The notes under the pieces are model-generated. The model was given only the letters and a program-made list of their open reading frames with translations, did no database searches and had not been told where the DNA came from. From Rhabdophis nuchalis (lineage: Eukaryota; Chordata; Lepidosauria; Squamata; Natricidae): a DNA stretch of 64,000 bases. The position numbers and the translations under genes were made by a program. Positions 15,961 to 32,096 of the stretch are shown here, in pieces. Each line of letters opens with the position of its first letter. Within the stretch, counting starts at the first letter, position 1. The DNA lies in contig CM077643.1 in NCBI GenBank assembly GCA_039707465.1, positions 44,768,605-44,832,604 on the forward strand, given 5' to 3'.

Positions 15961-16510
15961 CCCTTCACCAAAATGGCTGTGCAGAGCCTCTAGGAAGCTT
16001 TTAGAGAGCTTCTGGGGCCTGGGGAGGGCACAAATGAGCAAGAAATGGCCCATTTTTTGCTCAATTCTACCCCCCTCAGCCCCCAGGAGCACTCTATAAC
16101 AGGGGTCTCCAACCTTTGCAACTTTAAGTCTGAAGGACTTCAACTCCCAGAATTCTCCAGCCAGCTTTGCTGGCTGGAGAATTCTGGGAGTTGAAGTCCT
16201 TCAGACTTAAAGTTGCAAAGGTTGGAGACCCCTGCTCTATAAGCTTCCTAAAGACTTTTTTTGCCCTTTAAAAAAAATGAAAAATGGGCCTGTTTTTGAG
16301 AAAAACAGGGCGGTTTTTGCTCGTCCCCCCCACCAAGAGCACTCTGCAAGCTCCCTAAAGGCTTTTGGGGGGGGGGAATGGGCCCATTTTTGCAAAAAAT
16401 AGTCGTTTTTGGGAGGTTTGCGGAACGCAAAACCTTTAAAAAAAAATTTCTCTTCAAAATCTTGTTGCATCTTATACTCCGCTGCGTCTTATTCTCTGAA
16501 AAATACGGTA
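15961..16510. repeat. Diverged repeat hosting a hairpin MITE
   Basis: ATGGCCCATTTTTTGC, GGGCCCATTTTTGCAAAAA and AGAGCTTCTGGGGCCTGGGG resemble the interior of the element at 57,819-58,452. The hairpin MITE at 16,100-16,234 is inserted into it. Confidence 0.5.
16100..16234. mobile_element. Hairpin hAT MITE, 66-bp perfect arms
   Basis: The two 66-bp arms are exact reverse complements around TTT. The perfect duplication CTCTATAA lies at 16,092-16,099 and 16,235-16,242. This is one of the best-preserved copies in the window. Confidence 0.96.
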
Positions 16511-16992: not shown

Positions 16993-17012
16993 GAGAAAGC
17001 TGGGTCTATGTT

Positions 17013-19030
17013 CGATTTTGAAAAAGTTTTATTGAGTTTTAACAATTTTCTGAAGGGTGGGGTAAGGGTTACAGAAACATTTTGAGAACCTTTGCGTCAG
17101 AGTCCTTGGCCCATCCCGGGCTACATAATAAAACAATAGTAAACAAATTTATCAAAAAAAAATACTACAAGATAGAGACCAGTGTATACATATTACATAT
17201 TACATTTCCAATTCTGAGATGGCAGACATGTACAAACATCCTGGTACAAAAAAGAATAGAAAGAAAAGTTAATAAGAAAAAAGAAAAGCAAGCAAAATCA
17301 TTTTTTTGATCTAAGTCTTTTGGCAATTGTATCTTCTTTTTCTCCTGCTTGGTCTCCCGTGGGCGGGGGCGTGGCCCCCTCCGCCCCCCCTGGATCTTCG
17401 CCCAGGACAGAGGAATGTTTTTTAATAAAGGCTTCCGCCTCAGCAACTGTTTTAATTCTCATTCTTCCTCCTTCCCAGAACACCAGCATCCCTTCGGGCA
17501 TCGCCCACTTGAACCAGATCCCGTGATCAAACAATTTTTTAGATAAGAAGGAAAATTTCCTTCTCATTTCTCTGATTTTTTTGGGACCTGCTTCAAGATA
17601 GCGACAACCTTTTGTTGGTAAATTAGAGGACCCCCTCTCTGCGCCCTCAAAATTCCCTCTCTGGTTGACCTTCTGACAAATTTAATGTGTATCTCTCTGG
17701 GTGCTTCATTTATCCTGGCATATGCAGAGTTTATTCTGTAGACTAGGTCAATGTCCCCCCTGATCTCATCTTTAGGTTTATGTAAATAGTCTGCTAAAAT
17801 TGTGTTCATGAGTTCAGGAAGACATTCACCAGATTCTTCAGAAATGTTCTGAAATCTTAAAAAATATGACATCCTTTCGAAATCCATCCTAGACATATGC
17901 CCAGTTAATTCCCCCACCTCACTGTTGACATTTTTAAGCTCTCCCTTTGCCTCAGTTAGCCCCCCTTCCAGATCTTCAGTCTTCTGTATGTTCTCCTTCA
18001 CTTGATTACGAGTTTCCAGGAGTTCCTTCTTAAAGTTGTTATTTTCTTCTCTCTGCGCCTTAATTTCCTGTACCAAAGTTTGTATAACAGATTCCAGAGA
18101 AGACAATCTTTGTTCCAATCCTGCCAATTCTGATTTTTGTGCCATGGTTAACTGTTAGAGTCAGTGCCACTAAAATGGCGTTTTTTGGGTGGAGCCGTTG
18201 AGACAAATCAGGAGGTAAAAGTTTCAAATCAAGGTTATAAAAAAGTTCAAGAACCAGTAGAGAAACACTTTCCCAAATCAATAGTTATAATAAAAAAGGC
18301 ACTCCAGACAGGGAATCAATTAATCCAAAAAAGTTCTTCATTAATAGCAAGAGGAAGTCCAAATTACAAGAAGATGCTGGTAGTTTTCCATAAATAAAAT
18401 AGTCATTCAGGAGCGGAGAGAAGCCATCTTCCACCGCCCAAGCTGGGAGCCAGCCGGAAAAAGTAACAAAGAAATAAGTTGTAACAAGCCAATCGAACTT
18501 AGAAACATTGTTGCAAGCCGCAGATCACTTTCACTCGCTTTCACTAAGTTCCAGGCAAACTGCATAGAGAAAAATCCGTCCCTCGCAATGAGGAACCATT
18601 TCAAAGCGCCGCTTTAAATCCGAGGGGGGGTTTAACGAAAAAAACACCCCCCTCCAAGCTTTTTAGTCCAGCGCTGCCATCGGAGATAAAATAGCAGATA
18701 AAAGCACACTCACTCTTCACCTTGCAGCCGAGCCTCGGGAGAGCCTTCCGACCCGGACGTCTGGCTCACTCCAAAATTAAGCAACTTTTCCGTTCTCCAT
18801 TGGCGAAGGTGGAGACAGGCGTCTCCCCCCGCAGCCAGCCTTTCGTCACCTAGGCTGAAGACAAGGGTCGCTTTCCCACCGCCGTGGGAAGGGGGCGTCC
18901 CTAGCAAGCCAACCCTATGGGAGACCCCCAAGATGGGGCGTCTCGCCCCCGTGGGGGGGCAGAAAAAAGGACAAAGCGGCGGACGAGTCAAGGACCCATC
19001 CGTCGCCGTTGGAGGGCGGAAGCGGAAACC
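17013..19030 (-). mobile_element. HAL1-like (L1 ORF1-only) retrotransposon
   Basis: A 2,018-bp element on the - strand, bounded by a perfect 20-bp direct repeat, GAGAAAGCTGGGTCTATGTT, at 16,993-17,012 and 19,031-19,050. In transcript order it has a GC-rich 5' region of about 885 bp (19,030-18,146), an ORF1 coding region (18,145-17,298) and about 285 bp of 3' UTR. AATAAA lies some 15 bases from its end. No ORF2 sequence (endonuclease, RT or CCHC) is present, and no long poly(A) follows. The duplication argues that the ORF1-only form inserted as such. HAL1-type half-L1 elements are known in mammals. Confidence 0.75.
17298..18145 (-). pseudogene. L1 ORF1p (RNA-binding chaperone), one frameshift
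   Basis: Starts at ATG 18,145 (protein begins MAQKSELAGLEQRL). Residues of about 5-85 form heptad-rich coiled coil (VIQTLVQEIKAQREENNNF), the trimerisation region of L1 ORF1p. An RRM-like segment follows (RMSYFLRFQNISEESGE, about residues 92-165), then the start of the C-terminal domain (REIHIKFVRRSTREGIL). The frame stops at 17,564, but the C-terminal domain continues in another frame (RRKFSFLSKKLFDHGIWFKW, ending at 17,298). The break is one base in an A7 run on the - strand near 17,578-17,584. It could be a real mutation, a homopolymer sequencing error or, less likely, a slippage site. The protein would bind L1-type RNA and assist target-primed reverse transcription supplied in trans. Confidence 0.85.
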
Positions 19031-19144
19031 GAGAAAGCTGGGTCTATGTTGAACAGGAAAGGCCTTACATGCAGCATGCATGACAAGGAGGTCTTGGAAA
19101 TGTATTTTTGTTAATGGCTCGAAAGGCAGAAGATGGATATGGGC

Positions 19145-19383
19145 AATCGTTTTTACTATTTATTATTATTATTATTATTATTTGTGAGCTTGTTAGTTGC
19201 AAATTCATGTCTGACCCACCACAACCCCATGGACAACATTTGTCAGCCCTGGTAGAGATAGTAGTAGTTCTTCTTCTTCTTCTTCTTCTTCTTCTTCTTC
19301 TTCTTCTTCTTCTTCTTCTTCTTCTTCTTCTTCTTCTTCTTCTTCTTCTTCTTCTTCTTCTTCTTCTTCTTCTTCTTCTTCTT

Positions 19384-19414
<31 letters not shown>

Positions 19415-20004: not shown

Positions 20005-21265
20005 TTGCAAAAGACAGAATGGGAAGGGACCTTGGGGTCCAACTCTAGTCCAACCCCTTCCTCAAGCAGGAGGTCCTATACCATGTCTGACAAATGTTGT
20101 CCAGGTTCTTCTTAAAAACCTCCAGTGATGAAGCACCTACAACATCTGAAAGCAAGCTGTTCCACTGTTTGTTTTTTTCCCCTTTTTTTAAAATATTTTT
20201 TTAAATTTTTATTTATTCTTGTAAAAAACATAATTTTAAACATATCACGCCACATATCACAGCATGAAAGAAACATATAAGTAACCCAAATTAACATAAA
20301 AATCCTAATAGTAGGCATAATATTTAACCCCAGCATTTACGCTATATACAACCCATCTAAATAAACTACCTACTATTTCATCAGTTCTTATTCATCATTA
20401 ATTTTCCTATTAATATAGTTAACAAATATCCAAATTAAGCATGTATTATTGCTTCAGTCGTTACTATTCCATCATTTAAGGATCCAATTATACCACCTCT
20501 TCCATGAATTATAGAATTCTGAATCCTTTTCCCTTTAAGTAATTTCATTAATCTGTCAGATTCTGCGCACTCATTGATTTTGTTTATTACTGCCCCATCG
20601 GTTGGTATTTGTTCACTTTTCCACTCCTGGTCAAATGCCAATCTTGCCGCAATAATTATATGCAACGCCAGAAACCATATATCCATACTAATATCTGGGG
20701 GCTTAAGTCCTACAAGGAAGGTTTCCGTTTTCAGTTCCAATCGATATTGGGTAATTTCTGTTAGCCACTGTCTTCTCTCTTTCCAGTACTTGACCACCAT
20801 CAGGCAGGTCCACCACTGATGAAAATAGGTCCCGTCCATGTGGCTACATTTCCAACAATTAGGCACTGTCCCAGGGAACATTATGGCAAGTCTTGCCAGA
20901 GGTAGGTGCCACCGATAAAGCATTTTGTATATACCTATTCTCCCTATACGAAGCTGCCATTGTCAGTTTCATGTTTTTAAACCAGATTTCTTCCCAGCTT
21001 TGAAAATCAAGTGTACGTCCTATGTTCTGTCCCCAAGCAATCGTACAATCCTTATGGTATGGTGTCCAGTCTCTTCTTAAAAACTTCCAGTGATGAAGCA
21101 CCTACATACAATGTCTAAAAGCAAGCTGTTCCACTGTTTAATTGTTCTCACTGTCAGGACATTTCTTGTTTCTAGGTTAGATCTCTCTTTGGTAACTTTT
21201 CATCTGTTGCTTTTTGTTCTGCCTTCAGGTGCTTTGGAGAATAGATTGACTCCAAAATGTCAAAG
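20005..21265 (-). mobile_element. CR1 LINE 3' end split by an L1
   Basis: CR1 sequence at 20,005-20,170 and again at 21,062-21,265. The stretch about 20,095-20,170 is repeated with roughly 10% differences at 21,062-21,139 on the far side of the L1 fragment. Confidence 0.8.
20171..21061 (-). pseudogene. L1 ORF2 C-terminal fragment
   Basis: The - strand carries an L1 3' part: T-rich sequence on the + strand at 20,170-20,200 (decayed poly(A) tail), 3' UTR, then two overlapping frames (20,435-20,923 and part of 20,859-21,101). They encode WGQNIGRTLDFQSWEEIW and a zinc knuckle, CWKCSHMDGTYFHQWWTC (CX2CX8HX4C). A frameshift separates them near 20,920. No RT or endonuclease remains. Confidence 0.85.
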
Positions 21266-23709: not shown

Positions 23710-24557
23710 TTTTTTTTTGTTTTTTTGTTTTTTTTAAAACAATTTTTATTTTTATTTTTGAACAAACACAAACAAATATAACAAAAAGCAAAAAACATAA
23801 ACTCCATCTTCTATTACAAATTGTAGAAAATGTGTCAGTTGGTTACAAACTGTGCATCTCTTCCATAGTCATATTCATATCAAATCACATATTTTAGTTC
23901 AAATATATTTATATATATTACAATTATTATACCTCAACCTTCATTTGACTATCTTGTTTCCAGCCATTGATAAAATGTATTCCAAATTTCATAGAATTGT
24001 TCACTGTCTTGCTCTCTAATTTCAAATGTTAATTTACTCATCTCTGCACATTCCATAATTTTATAAATAATTTCTTGCTGTGATGGTAATTTGTCATTTC
24101 TCCAATTTTTTGCAAAGACGATTCTGGCGGCTGTCAAAATATTCACAATTAGGTATTTCAAATTTTTGTCCAGTGTTTCTAAAGTAAGTCCTAGCAGGAA
24201 GAGTTCGGGTTTGAAATCTATATGTTTTCCTGTTATTTTGTCCAACCATGTGTGGATCATACTCCAGTAATTTTTGGCCTCCGAGCAAGTCCACCACATA
24301 TGGTAGTAAGTACCAGGCGTCTGATGACATTTCCAACATTTTTGAGATTTGTTCTTACTCATTTTTGAGATTCTTGAGGGTGATAAGTGCCACCTGTAGA
24401 ACATCTTGTATAAGTTCTCTTTGTAGGCTGTTGACATCGTCATTTTGTAATTTTGTGTCCACAATGTTTGCCACTTATCTAAGTCGATCCCATGCCCGAA
24501 GTTTTTCCCCCATATTATCATTGTTTCTTTCACTTGCTCTTCCTGGAGTTTAAACTC
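23710..24557 (-). pseudogene. L1 3' part: ORF2 C-terminus and 3' UTR
   Basis: The left (3') part of a single L1 on the - strand. A degenerate poly(A) tail, seen as T runs at 23,710-23,740, abuts the duplication TTGTATTATTATG (23,697-23,709). The - strand frame from 24,557 down to 23,949 encodes KETMIIWGKNFGHGIDLDKW and a CX2CX8HX4C knuckle (CWKCHQTPGTYYHMWWTC). It ends at a natural-looking stop after FYQWLETR. The codon order LLEF|KLQEEQ continues exactly from the fragment starting at 29,217, so the two are one element split by the L2. Confidence 0.92.
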
Positions 24558-24570
24558 CAGGAAGAGCAAG
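24533..24570. repeat. 38-bp perfect palindrome at L1/L2 junction
   Basis: CTTGCTCTTCCTGGAGTTT (24,533-24,551) is followed with no spacer by its exact reverse complement to 24,570. The left arm and the first six bases of the right arm are L1. The remaining 13 bases are an inverted copy of L1 placed at the 5' end of the L2. Confidence 0.95.
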
Positions 24571-25731
24571 CAATGAGCATGCAGCAATGAGCATGCAGCA
24601 ATGCTTCGCGCATGCAGCAATGAGCATGCGCGAAGGAATGGCGGCGGAGGTTTGAGGCGATGCTGACCGGAGGCCCATTTGGCTTCGGAGGACGCGGCCG
24701 GCCCCTTTGGGGTGATCGGCAAGGGCCGGCCCAGCAAGTTGAAGACCCAGCCGTCACACTGAGGCCTTTCCAACGCCGGTGAGTGTGACGGCTGAGACGG
24801 GAGGCGCGGGGGGAGCCCGGAGGAAAACGCCGGAAAAAAAAAAAAAAAAAACGCCGGCAGGCCGGAAAGTCGGAGGCCCTAGCAGAGGCCAGGCAAAGGC
24901 TGGAGGCTCTGGTGGACTGATAGAGCGGTGGCAGAGGGAGCGCCGGAAGGCCGGAGGCCCTGGCAGAAGCCGGTGGAGGCCGGAGGCCTCAGATGGAATG
25001 GAGCGGCGGCGGAGAGCGCCGGAAGATCCTGAGGCCCTGGCGGAGGCTGGTGGAGGCCGGAGGCCCTGGCGGAGCGGCGGCGGAGAGCGCCAAAAGGCCG
25101 GAGGCCCCAGCGGAGGTTGGCGGAGGCTGGTGGCCCCCGGCGGAGGGGCTGAGCGGCAGCGGAGCGCTGGAGGGAGCGGCAGCGGAGCGCTGGAGGGAGC
25201 GCCGGAACGCCGGGTGGTAGGAAAGGCGGAGCGGCGGCGGAGCAGTGGCGGAGCTGCGCGGACCATCTCAAACCCGGCGGAGGCCCCCGTGGAGCAGCGA
25301 GGCCGGGTGAAGGCCTCCACAGGGGATGGCTGGTGAGGTTGGCGGCCGCAGAGGGACGGGAGGTGCGGCGGACCGATGGAGCGCCGGAGGCCCCAGCAGA
25401 GGCCTATTGGAGTGGTGGAGGCCCTGGCTGAGGCCCTGGTGTGGGGTGGCGAGCCTGCGACGCGGTGAGGCCCTGTGGAGGCCTGATAGAACAGTGGAGG
25501 GAATTTTCCTCCCCCCCCCCCAGGACTCCCCGATAAAACATCTACGGGGAGGGGGGGCGAGAGCGAAGCAAGGCCAGCCCAAAGGAAAAACAGCTCCAGC
25601 CACCCCGTGGAAAGCCTCTACCCGAGGAAGAACTGACTGACTCTTATGATCTATTTTCCCTGTTGATTTGACTTGCACTTGCACTTTATCTATGCGTTTC
25701 CTCCCTTTAAAGCCAGCAATGGAGCCACGGG
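24571..25731 (+). promoter_or_regulatory. L2 GC-rich 5' region, putative internal promoter
   Basis: The first 85 bp carry short repeats (CAATGAGCATGCAG twice, then variants with CGCGCATGC). From about 24,900 come GCGGCGGAGAGCGCC-type monomers. An Arg/Gly-rich frame at 24,779-25,336 (185 codons) crosses this tract. It may be a compositional artefact and I do not call it a protein. Promoter role is inferred from position and CpG density. Confidence 0.5.
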
Positions 25732-29216: not shown

Positions 29217-31597
29217 AAACTCTAGTAAGTAGGTATAGAGTTTTTTAATTATTTTTTCATCGACGCCTGTTAATATCTTGTCTAATTCCGTCATTTTGTC
29301 ATAAACCCCTCCTTTTTTTTGATCTTCCTTGTATCTTGAATGTATCTGTGTGTATGTATACCAATTAATATCCATTCCTTCTTGTTTTAGTTCCTGAATA
29401 GTTTTAAGATCACCCCTTGAGTTTAATAGATCCGAATATCTGATTGTTCGTTCCTTTTTGTGTATTATTGCGTACGTAAATGCTTCGGTAATTGATACCC
29501 AGACTGGTATTTTGAAATAATGCAGTTTCTTGATCTTCTCCCAGTTTACAATCAGAAAATCCCTTACATAGTGCCTTCTGAAAATACTATGTTTCCTGGT
29601 GGTTCGGTACCATAGAGCTGCGTGCCATCCTGATGGCAAATCATGTCCCTCTAATTTCAATAATCTAGTATTTCTTAGTGTAATCCAATCTTTAATCCAC
29701 ATCAGATTCGCAGCTTGATGATATAGTTCCCAATCAGGCAATCCCATACCTCCCCTTATTTTGGTATCTTGTAAAATTTTTAATTTTATTCTAGCTTTTT
29801 TACCTTGCCATATGAACTTTAAGACCATTTTCCTTAATTTTTCAAAAAAGTCCTTGCCCAATCTAATTGGGATTGTCTGGAATAAGTATAATACTTTAGG
29901 CAAAATATTCATTTTTATCGTGGCTATTCTCCCTAGTAATGATAGTTGTAAATTCTGCCATCTCGTAAGATCTACTTCTATTTGTTGTGTGAGTTTAGAG
30001 TAATTCTCCTTTTTAAGGGTGCTGCATCTCGACGTCAAAAAGATTCCTAGATATTTAAGCTTGTTTGTGATTTGAATTTTCAAGATTTCTGTTAATTCTT
30101 CTTTCTGTCTTCTTGTCATATTCTTTGTTAAGATTTGTGTCTTGTCTTTGTTTATTTTCAGACCTGTTATTTTCCCATATTCCTCAATTTTCCCTATCAG
30201 TTTGGACGCGGTTTTAAGTGGTTCCTCGAGAATAAAAACTAGGTCGTCTGCAAAAGCTTGTAATTTATATTGTTCTTTCCTAATTGTCATTCCCTTTATT
30301 TCTTTGTCTTCTCTTATCTTTCTATTTAACACTTCTAGCGTTAATACGAAAAGTAAAGGTGATAGTGGGCAACCTTGTCTTGTACCTCTTTTTATCTGGA
30401 TGTTATCTGAAAGCTCTCCATTTATTATTATCCTGGCTGTTTGATTGTGATATATAGTGCTTATAACATGTATAAAGTTTTGACCAAATTCCATTTGTTC
30501 TAGCTGATGCAACATAAACTTCCAATTCACGTTATCAAAGGCTTTTTGTGCATCAAGAAACATCAAAGCCATTTGTTTTTCAGGATGTGCTTCATAATAT
30601 TCCAACGTATTCAAAATTATTCTCATGTTGTCTTTAATTTGTCTCTTTGGTAAAAATCCATTTTGATCTGGATGTATAAAATTGTTTAAGTATTTTTTGA
30701 GCCTTTCTGCTAGTATTGATGCAAATAACTTATAATCCGAGTTTAACAATGAAATTGGTCGGTAATTCTTTACCTGCAGGGGATCTGTTCCTTCCTTTGG
30801 TATCAGTGAAATATAGGCTTCTGACCAAGAATTCGGCATTTTACTACCAGACATAATTTCATTCATCAATTCTAATAAAGGAAGGGATAGTATTTCCTCC
30901 AAGATTTTATAAAACTCTCCTGGGAGGCCATCCGGTCCCGGGGCTTTTAATAGCTTCAGTTAGTTCCATCATCGTTATCTTTGCATTTAATATATTTCTG
31001 CTGTCGTCCGCTATAACTGGGAGGTTTGCCTCTTGTAAGTAGTTTTTAACATCCTGTTCTAGAATGTTTTCTTTTTCGTATAATTTTATATAATATTCCT
31101 GAACAATTTTTTTTCCTCCTCATTTGAGTAATGTATTTGTCCTTGTTCATTTTTTAATTGTTGAATCTTCCTTGTCTCTCTCTCTTTCTTTAGTTTGTAC
31201 GCCAACCATCTTCCAGGTTTATTTGCGTTTTCAAAATAATTCTGTTTTGCAGATCTTATCTTCTGAGCCAATTCTTCTTTTTCTGAAATATCCATTTTAT
31301 GTTTAATTAGATCCATTTTCATTCTAATATCTTTTCTCTGTGGTAGTTTCTGTAGTTCTTTTTCCAGTGTTTTATATTCATTCTCTAATCTTTTCTGTAG
31401 CCCTCTTTTCTCTTTATTTCTTTTTCTTGTATAATCTATTATTAAACCTCTAGTAACTGCTTTCATTGCATCCCATGTATTCTGAATAGATGTATCTTCT
31501 TTTTTGTTTTCTTTAAAATAACACCTCAGTTCTTTTTCCATTTTACTTTTAAAGTTTTTCTCTTTCAATATTGCATTATTTAATGTCCATCTGGATC
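29217..31597 (-). pseudogene. L1 ORF2 central part (RT domain), 5'-truncated
   Basis: The - strand encodes the linker and RT of L1 ORF2. 31,568-31,086 gives SKMEKELRCYFKENKKEDTS through NKPGRWLAYKLKK. The frame ending near 30,902 gives NYRPISLLNSDYKLFASILA, MFLDAQKAFDNVNW, RGTRQGCPLSPLLF and the catalytic FADD. A frameshift near 30,940-30,965 (at the APGPDGLPGEFY motif) separates the two. The endonuclease and ORF1 are missing because the copy is 5' truncated at 31,597, right beside the second TTGTATTATTATG (31,598-31,610). At 29,217 it is interrupted by the L2 and resumes at 24,557. Confidence 0.92.
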
Positions 31598-31610
31598 TTG
31601 TATTATTATG

Positions 31611-32096
31611 GAAGGGGAATGTAGGAGAAGGAGTGGCAGAACCAGGGGGCAGAGCTAAAAGAGCAATCAGATGTAGGGCACTTGTGGCTATGTAGGGATT
31701 CTAGGCTGATCCCTCTTTTAACTTCAACCCCAGGTTCTGCAACTCCTTCACCTACAGACAGAGTGGTATAAACTGCATCTGCCAAGAGAGTTCATGCTGT
31801 TTCTTGGGAGTCTTCTTCTCCTGCACACCTGACCAAAGGATGCTAAGGTGGCTCTCCTTTTTTCATCTGGATGTCCAGAAAAAAATCATGTATGTCAGAG
31901 TGTGCACAGTGTAACTACTATTTTGAGTCAACCCAGGAGCAAAAAACAGTACGCAGAGGTTTTGTCTTTCAAACAGTGGTTTATATACAAGACTTATACA
32001 TACATACCTACATGTTTTAGGCAAATACCAGGCAATCAATCTTTAACTCTACATGGGAAACCACAATGGTGAGATACACGAGGAAAGAGATACATA

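What the first reader, a model, noticed from the sequence alone, without database searches (positions are those of the whole stretch)
17013..19030. HAL1-like, ORF1-only L1 retrotransposon bounded by a perfect 20-bp duplication
The element carries a GC-rich 5' region, an L1 ORF1 (coiled coil, RRM-like and C-terminal domains) and a short 3' UTR, but no ORF2. The identical 20-mers at both edges show it inserted in this form rather than being a later deletion of a full L1. Half-L1 elements are described in mammals. A squamate version with its own 5' region and no long poly(A) would be a separate origin of the same strategy: ORF1 carried, ORF2 borrowed.
Basis: partly seen in the sequence, partly recalled or inferred. 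Interest (0 to 1): 0.75.

Follow-up and report, generated by a model that had tools for sequence, protein, structure and literature searches.

The report
Half-L1 jumping element family
This is one dead copy of a large, long-lived group of jumping elements that carry only one of the two genes of a LINE-1 and most likely borrow the cutting and copying enzyme from complete LINE-1s in the same genome, a way of life described so far in mammals.

Summary
Window 17013-19030 (minus strand) is an ORF1-only L1-type element between perfect 20-bp duplications. It is a family: 37 near-full-length copies (window included) share both edges, 34 of them with their own 11-23-bp duplications, and 548 family 3' ends exist. 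Three sister families (B/E, C, D; ORF1 67-79% identical, alignable 3' UTRs) are also ORF1-only; B/E has 6386 exact 3' ends. Of 30 family-A ORF1 motifs followed, none has ORF2 behind it; of 72 B/E motifs, 65 run into the family 3' UTR at the expected distance, 3 lie further off and 4 stay unresolved. A complete L1 with intact ORF2 lives in this genome; its ORF1 is 31% identical. Among family-A copies unique changes look neutral (omega 0.98), shared ones constrained (0.24), so source elements needed a working ORF1. The modelled protein matches human L1 ORF1p best. Best reading: a HAL1-type element that supplies ORF1p to its own RNA and borrows L1 ORF2p. Corrections: this copy's ORF1 is frameshifted, and sister copies do have A-tails. 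The host (squamate) was not tested.

The parts
16993..17012 (.). target-site duplication, copy at the 3' end of the element
   Evidence: identical to 19031-19050
17013..19030 (-). ORF1-only L1-type element, family A
   Evidence: same edges in 36 further copies
18146..19030 (-). 5' UTR, first 330 bp 62% GC; presumed promoter region (inferred)
17298..18145 (-). ORF1, frameshifted in this copy (frames of 193 and 89 aa); L1 ORF1p homologue
17013..17297 (-). 3' UTR
   Evidence: alignable in sister families
17028..17033 (-). AATAAA, putative polyadenylation signal about 15 bases before the 3' end
   Evidence: sequence; conserved in families A, B/E, C, D
19031..19050 (.). target-site duplication, copy at the 5' end of the element
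   Evidence: identical to 16993-17012

Best explanation
The window holds one dead copy of a young family (A) in an older, diversified lineage of ORF1-only (half-L1, HAL1-type) retrotransposons. Most likely mechanism: a promoter in the 5' UTR gives a Pol II transcript that is polyadenylated after the conserved AATAAA; it is translated into an L1-type ORF1p that binds its own RNA in cis; ORF2p made by complete L1s of the same genome joins in trans, nicks an A-rich target and copies the RNA from its A-tail, leaving 11-23-bp duplications. Shown: structure, family, duplications, A-tails, lack of ORF2 in the copies followed, constraint on ORF1 in the source elements, presence of an L1 with intact ORF2. 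Inferred: promoter, polymerase, cis action of ORF1p, identity of the ORF2p donor.
For: 37 copies with the same edges, 34 with own duplications of 11-23 bp starting A-rich; 548 3' ends and 355 5' ends, reversed-pattern controls 0. Junction without ORF2 in 30 of 30 family-A motifs followed on contig 1 (25 by distance, 5 read) and in 65 of 72 B/E motifs. Sister families B/E, C, D without ORF2. ORF1 31% identical to that of an ORF2-bearing L1 (E 1e-41); ten best PDB fold matches are human L1 ORF1p. Selection: singletons omega 0.98, shared variants 0.24, Fisher p 0.002; without CpG-type sites 1.10 and 0.16, p 0.0007; between families 0.10-0.29. Intact ORF2 (1250 aa, EN and RT domains) in L071. In cell culture Pol II transcripts needed ORF1p besides ORF2p, and a transcript encoding ORF1 inserted better than the other Pol II ones tested (PMC2666806, passages).
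Against: The ORF2p donor is not identified; apart from ten bases at the 5' terminus shared with family B/E, UTRs of the one complete L1 read do not match. 3 of 72 B/E motifs lie further from a 3' end and 4 are unresolved. The copy D shows no clear duplication. A profile of ORF1-only proteins alone finds L1 ORF1P in the PDB only at E 0.43, and none reached Pfam Transposase_22. Of 153 pairs of shared variants 59 are neither nested nor disjoint, so recurrent change or exchange between copies is present.
Confidence: 0.85

Rival explanations
1. The copies are retrocopies of the mRNA of a conserved host gene derived from L1 ORF1 (an L1TD1-like case): the gene is under selection, its copies are dead on arrival.
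For: Neutral singletons with constrained shared changes are also what processed copies of one gene would show.
Against: At least four families with their own 3' and 5' ends, thousands of copies, and disjoint groups of shared variants inside family A, which suggest several sources (tree support modest: 3 of 33 inner branches well supported). Families B/E begin with the same ten bases as a complete L1.
Confidence: 0.08
2. The real source is a complete L1 family with the same UTRs, not sampled here, and ORF1-only copies are its internally deleted or spliced transcripts.
For: ORF2-bearing loci were read at only 30 of 150 listed places and one complete L1 was read end to end; other L1 ORF2 families exist, e.g. 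window 29223-31637 at 47% identity.
Against: None of the family-A motifs followed has ORF2 behind it, no listed 5'-3' distance is near 5.8 kb, and the junction is the same in four diverged families. Among the 30 ORF2 loci only the window itself and two neighbouring ORF1-only pieces matched the element.
Confidence: 0.05
3. A private deletion derivative of one complete L1 at this locus.
For: None found.
Against: Hundreds of copies with the same junction and edges, 34 of 37 with independent duplications.
Confidence: 0.01

Closest known systems
HAL1 (half-L1) elements of mammals (PMC5753468 and PMC5322556, passages; Bao and Jurka 2010 not held, not read)
   Same: L1-derived, ORF1 only, A-tail, target-site duplications, presumed use of L1 RT and endonuclease in trans
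   Different: Here the ORF1 is related to ORF1s of this genome; one architecture is shared by at least four diverged families; more copies than the about 2,100 cited for human (6386 exact B/E 3' ends). Descent from mammalian HAL1 was not tested.
Complete L1 of this genome (L071)
   Same: ORF1 homologous (31%), first ten bases of the 5' terminus as in family B/E, A-rich end, short duplication
   Different: Carries a 1250-aa ORF2 and a longer ORF1 (359 aa); UTRs otherwise unrelated
HeT-A of Drosophila (PMC5537684, PMC3357415, passages)
   Same: Gag-type ORF without reverse transcriptase, enzyme probably taken from another element, long-lived lineage
   Different: Telomere-specific, different clade; here insertions are dispersed at A-rich sites
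L1TD1-type domesticated ORF1 (PMC4161310, search listing only)
   Same: L1 ORF1-derived protein-coding sequence without ORF2
   Different: L1TD1 is a host gene; here thousands of dispersed copies with duplications

Membership tests
HAL1-type (half-L1) element, as a kind | L1-type ORF1 present | tested here: met
   31% to ORF1 of an ORF2-bearing L1, E 1e-41; fold matches to human L1 ORF1p
HAL1-type (half-L1) element, as a kind | no ORF2 | tested here: met
   none in the element nor in 30 of 30 family-A motifs followed
HAL1-type (half-L1) element, as a kind | A-tail and target-site duplications, multi-copy | tested here: met
   34 of 37 duplications, 7 of 37 with a clear run of 5-15 A; 548 3' ends
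HAL1-type (half-L1) element, as a kind | mobilised by L1 ORF2p in trans | not testable with these tools
   only the A-rich target start, the duplications and an intact L1 ORF2 in the genome are seen
Mammalian HAL1 lineages | descent from mammalian L1 or HAL1 | not tested
   no mammalian HAL1 sequence was at hand
Autonomous L1 | ORF2 with endonuclease and reverse transcriptase downstream of ORF1 | tested here: not met
Pfam PF02994 (Transposase_22) | score above the curated cut-off | tested here: not met
   no match listed for the family-A ORF1; the L1 ORF1 of L071 scores 21.0 against 22.4

The most novel reading that the evidence does not exclude
ORF1-only retrotransposons can be a lasting way of life outside mammals. 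A single loss of ORF2 founded a clade that split into at least four families (ORF1 dS between families 0.47-1.7), kept ORF1 under purifying selection, reached thousands of copies, was active recently, and lives on ORF2p of L1s whose own ORF1p has diverged to about 31% identity. ORF1p would then be selected in cis while ORF2p is shared between unlike lineages.
Probability: 0.6. Interest if true: 0.75.

Novelty: new variant of a known kind. Interest (0 to 1): 0.6.

Why it matters
It is a natural experiment on what ORF1p is for. In an element without its own enzyme, changes in the source elements are still constrained in ORF1 while the dead copies drift, which argues that ORF1p helps the RNA that encodes it. 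It also suggests that an ORF2p donor need not match its client's ORF1p closely, and that half-L1s can radiate over long times rather than arise only as short-lived derivatives. In repeat annotation such copies could be taken for 5' pieces of L1.

Tried and rejected
Private deletion: rejected. A poly(A)-independent 3' end, suggested by the tailless window copy: rejected, since sister copies have A-tails. Direct descent from the intact L1 L071: not supported by UTRs or ORF1. Pfam on the ORF1-only proteins gave only weak coiled-coil look-alikes below the cut-offs; 2 of 8 members of alignment A1 matched PF02994 (best E 6.9e-05), and the family-A member was not one of them. A single-protein PDB search gave no L1 match; the ORF1-only profile gave L1 ORF1P at E 0.43; the profile with two L1 ORF1s added gave 2ldy at 1.4e-05. 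The protein database gave two relatives (84% over 71% and 73% over 61% of the query) on short ENA contigs without a name, so the spread across species is open. The BLASTP part printed nothing. No absolute date was attempted.

Literature: titles and abstracts listed; one search returned mostly unrelated papers. No HAL1 outside mammals was seen in these listings, which cover the held open-licence library only. Passages were searched in PMC5753468, PMC5322556, PMC6050309 (no hit for ORF1, ORF2, HAL1, non-autonomous), PMC8303610 (no hit for LINE-1, ORF1, ORF2, HAL1, non-autonomous), PMC3357415, PMC2666806, PMC5537684. Bao and Jurka 2010 is not held. No paper was read whole.

Limits of the counts: the scored copies are the best matches to the window copy, not a random draw. 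In the ORF and selection counts 39 copies were aligned; the family-A copy in L034 is missing because a script entry was overwritten by the B copy beside it. L038 was left out of the variant count (38 rows), L037-L040 of the haplotype count (35 rows), L037, L039, L040 of the tree (36 rows). The omega values use a simple fixed transition weight. On contig 1, 32 family-A ORF1 motifs were listed; 2 beyond 381.7 Mb were left out because the 3'-end list stops there.

Full report
The window copy. Window 17013-19030, minus strand, lies exactly between two identical 20-mers, 16993-17012 and 19031-19050. It has an 885-bp 5' UTR (first 330 bp 62% GC), ORF1, and a 285-bp 3' UTR with AATAAA about 15 bases before the end. 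ORF1 is broken by one missing base into frames of 193 and 89 aa. The window lies on contig 1 (411 Mb) of a 1.92-Gb genome.

It is a family. A DNA search scored 40 of 9860 first-look candidates and listed 43 matches. 37 copies, the window copy included, are near full length at 94% identity or more with the same two edges; 34 have duplications of 11-23 bp (median 17), and L006, L016 and L028 show none of 9 bases or more. The duplications begin A-rich: A is first in 24, second in 27 and fourth in 27 of the 34. 7 of the 37 carry a run of 5-15 A before the duplication, so the tailless end of the window copy is not the rule. The 39 aligned copies differ from their majority by 0.35-1.39%, L038 by 4.29%. 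Genome-wide there are 548 family-A 3' ends (up to 1 mismatch) and 355 5' ends (up to 3), with 0 matches of the reversed control patterns.

No ORF2 in family A. Of 32 exact ORF1 motifs listed on contig 1, the 30 up to 381.7 Mb could be followed: 25 have the 3' end 415-455 bp downstream. The other 5 were fetched, and all run from ORF1 into the element's 3' UTR with no ORF2 match. Of 37 5' ends listed on contig 1, 30 have a 3' end at 1956-2025 bp, two are nearer (1397, 1696), three further (2688, 2954, 3704; not read) and two have none. None is near the 5.8 kb of the complete L1. Among 30 loci fetched for their L1 ORF2 end, only the window itself and two neighbouring ORF1-only pieces (L042, L067) matched the element.

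Sister families. Neighbouring insertions in fetched loci gave relatives: B/E (L034, L040, L074; B and E are 98.6% alike in ORF1 and counted as one), C (L003/L073) and D (L042/L072). Their ORF1 is 67-79% identical to family A and open over 282-293 aa, except in the B copy of L034, which is frameshifted. Each passes from the ORF1 stop straight into an alignable 3' UTR with CAATAAAACTTTTT near its end. The 5' UTRs of B/E and D align by BLAST over long stretches, that of C only near its start. The B copy in L034 has a 14-bp duplication; E and C show duplications by eye; D shows none. B/E has 4696 exact ORF1 50-mers and 6386 exact 3' ends. Of its first 72 ORF1 motifs on contig 1, 60 have the 3' end at 392-441 bp, 5 more have a 3' UTR motif at 356-388 bp (lists compared by eye), 3 lie further (2165 and 3892 in a tandem array of 1727-bp period, 2455 beside an inverted copy; not read), and 4 are unresolved. 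An ORF1 50-mer at up to 3 mismatches, which takes in A and B/E, has 8644 places.

The complete L1. A search with the L1 ORF2 end at window 20435-20923 listed 150 matches of 19806 candidates, 7 in open frames of 1257 codons. One, L071, was read: ORF1 359 aa, ORF2 1250 aa with endonuclease and reverse transcriptase domains, an A-rich end and, by eye, a 15-bp duplication. Its ORF1 is 31% identical to that of family A over 261 positions (E 1e-41). Its UTRs do not match except that family B/E and L071 begin with the same ten bases, GGCTTCCGGT. L045 has an ORF1 piece at 36% followed by an ORF2 start. In a tree of 11 ORF1 rows one split (support 100/99) puts the ORF1-only rows with P0001 and fragment L026 on one side and the L1 rows with fragments L045 and L071b on the other; L045, L071b and L026 have long branches.

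Selection. Among 38 family-A copies, changes in one copy only are 21 synonymous and 54 nonsynonymous (omega 0.98), while changes shared by copies are 19 and 12 (0.24; Fisher p 0.002). Without CpG-type sites the counts are 15 and 47 (1.10) against 13 and 6 (0.16; p 0.0007); for changes shared by three or more copies omega is 0.12. Between families omega is 0.10-0.29. ORF1 is intact in 26 of 39 copies. Indel events number 60 in 881 bp of 5' UTR, 13 in 849 bp of ORF1 and 16 in 271 bp of 3' UTR; base runs in the UTRs may add to this. So source elements needed ORF1 and their copies decay freely. Shared variants form two main subfamilies and small disjoint groups, which suggests several sources; but 59 of 153 variant pairs conflict and only 3 of 33 inner branches of the copy tree are well supported.

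Mechanism. In cell culture Pol II transcripts needed ORF1p besides ORF2p, and the ORF1-encoding transcript inserted better than other Pol II ones, possibly because ORF1p is close by in cis (PMC2666806, passages). An element that brings its own ORF1p and borrows ORF2p fits this. Transcription, cis binding and the ORF2p donor are inferred.

Place among known things. Mammalian HAL1s are non-autonomous L1 derivatives encoding ORF1 only, arisen several times (PMC5753468), with A-tail and duplications, about 2,100 copies in human (PMC5322556). HeT-A shows that a Gag-only element can last (PMC5537684, PMC3357415). This lineage is of the HAL1 kind; descent from mammalian HAL1 was not tested. What is unusual is the shared architecture over at least four diverged families, the copy number, the recent activity and the clear signal of selection on ORF1.

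Noticed in passing
window 20438-21053 (-): 3' end of an L1 ORF2, 79-90% identical at the protein level to the intact ORF2 of L071; it was used as the query that found the complete L1s.
   Followed up: yes
window 29223-31637 (-) and 23943-24620 (-): ORF2 pieces of a second L1-like family, 47% and 41% identical to the ORF2 of L071; its ORF1 and UTRs were not looked for.
   Followed up: no
L042 and L072 (contig 2, about 131469990-131471950): A family D copy lies in antisense between an L1 ORF1 and the 3' part of an L1 ORF2 whose first about 895 residues are missing; it shows no clear duplication.
   Followed up: partly
L003 (contig 8, 43188227 onward): A family A copy sits in the same orientation at the 5' duplication of a family C copy.
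   Followed up: no
contig 1, 15063245-15067137: Tandem array of B/E ORF1 motifs with a period of 1727 bp.
   Followed up: no
window about 16105-16235: Long inverted repeat, seen by eye.
   Followed up: no
window about 19267-19414: Long (CTT)n microsatellite just beyond the element.
   Followed up: no
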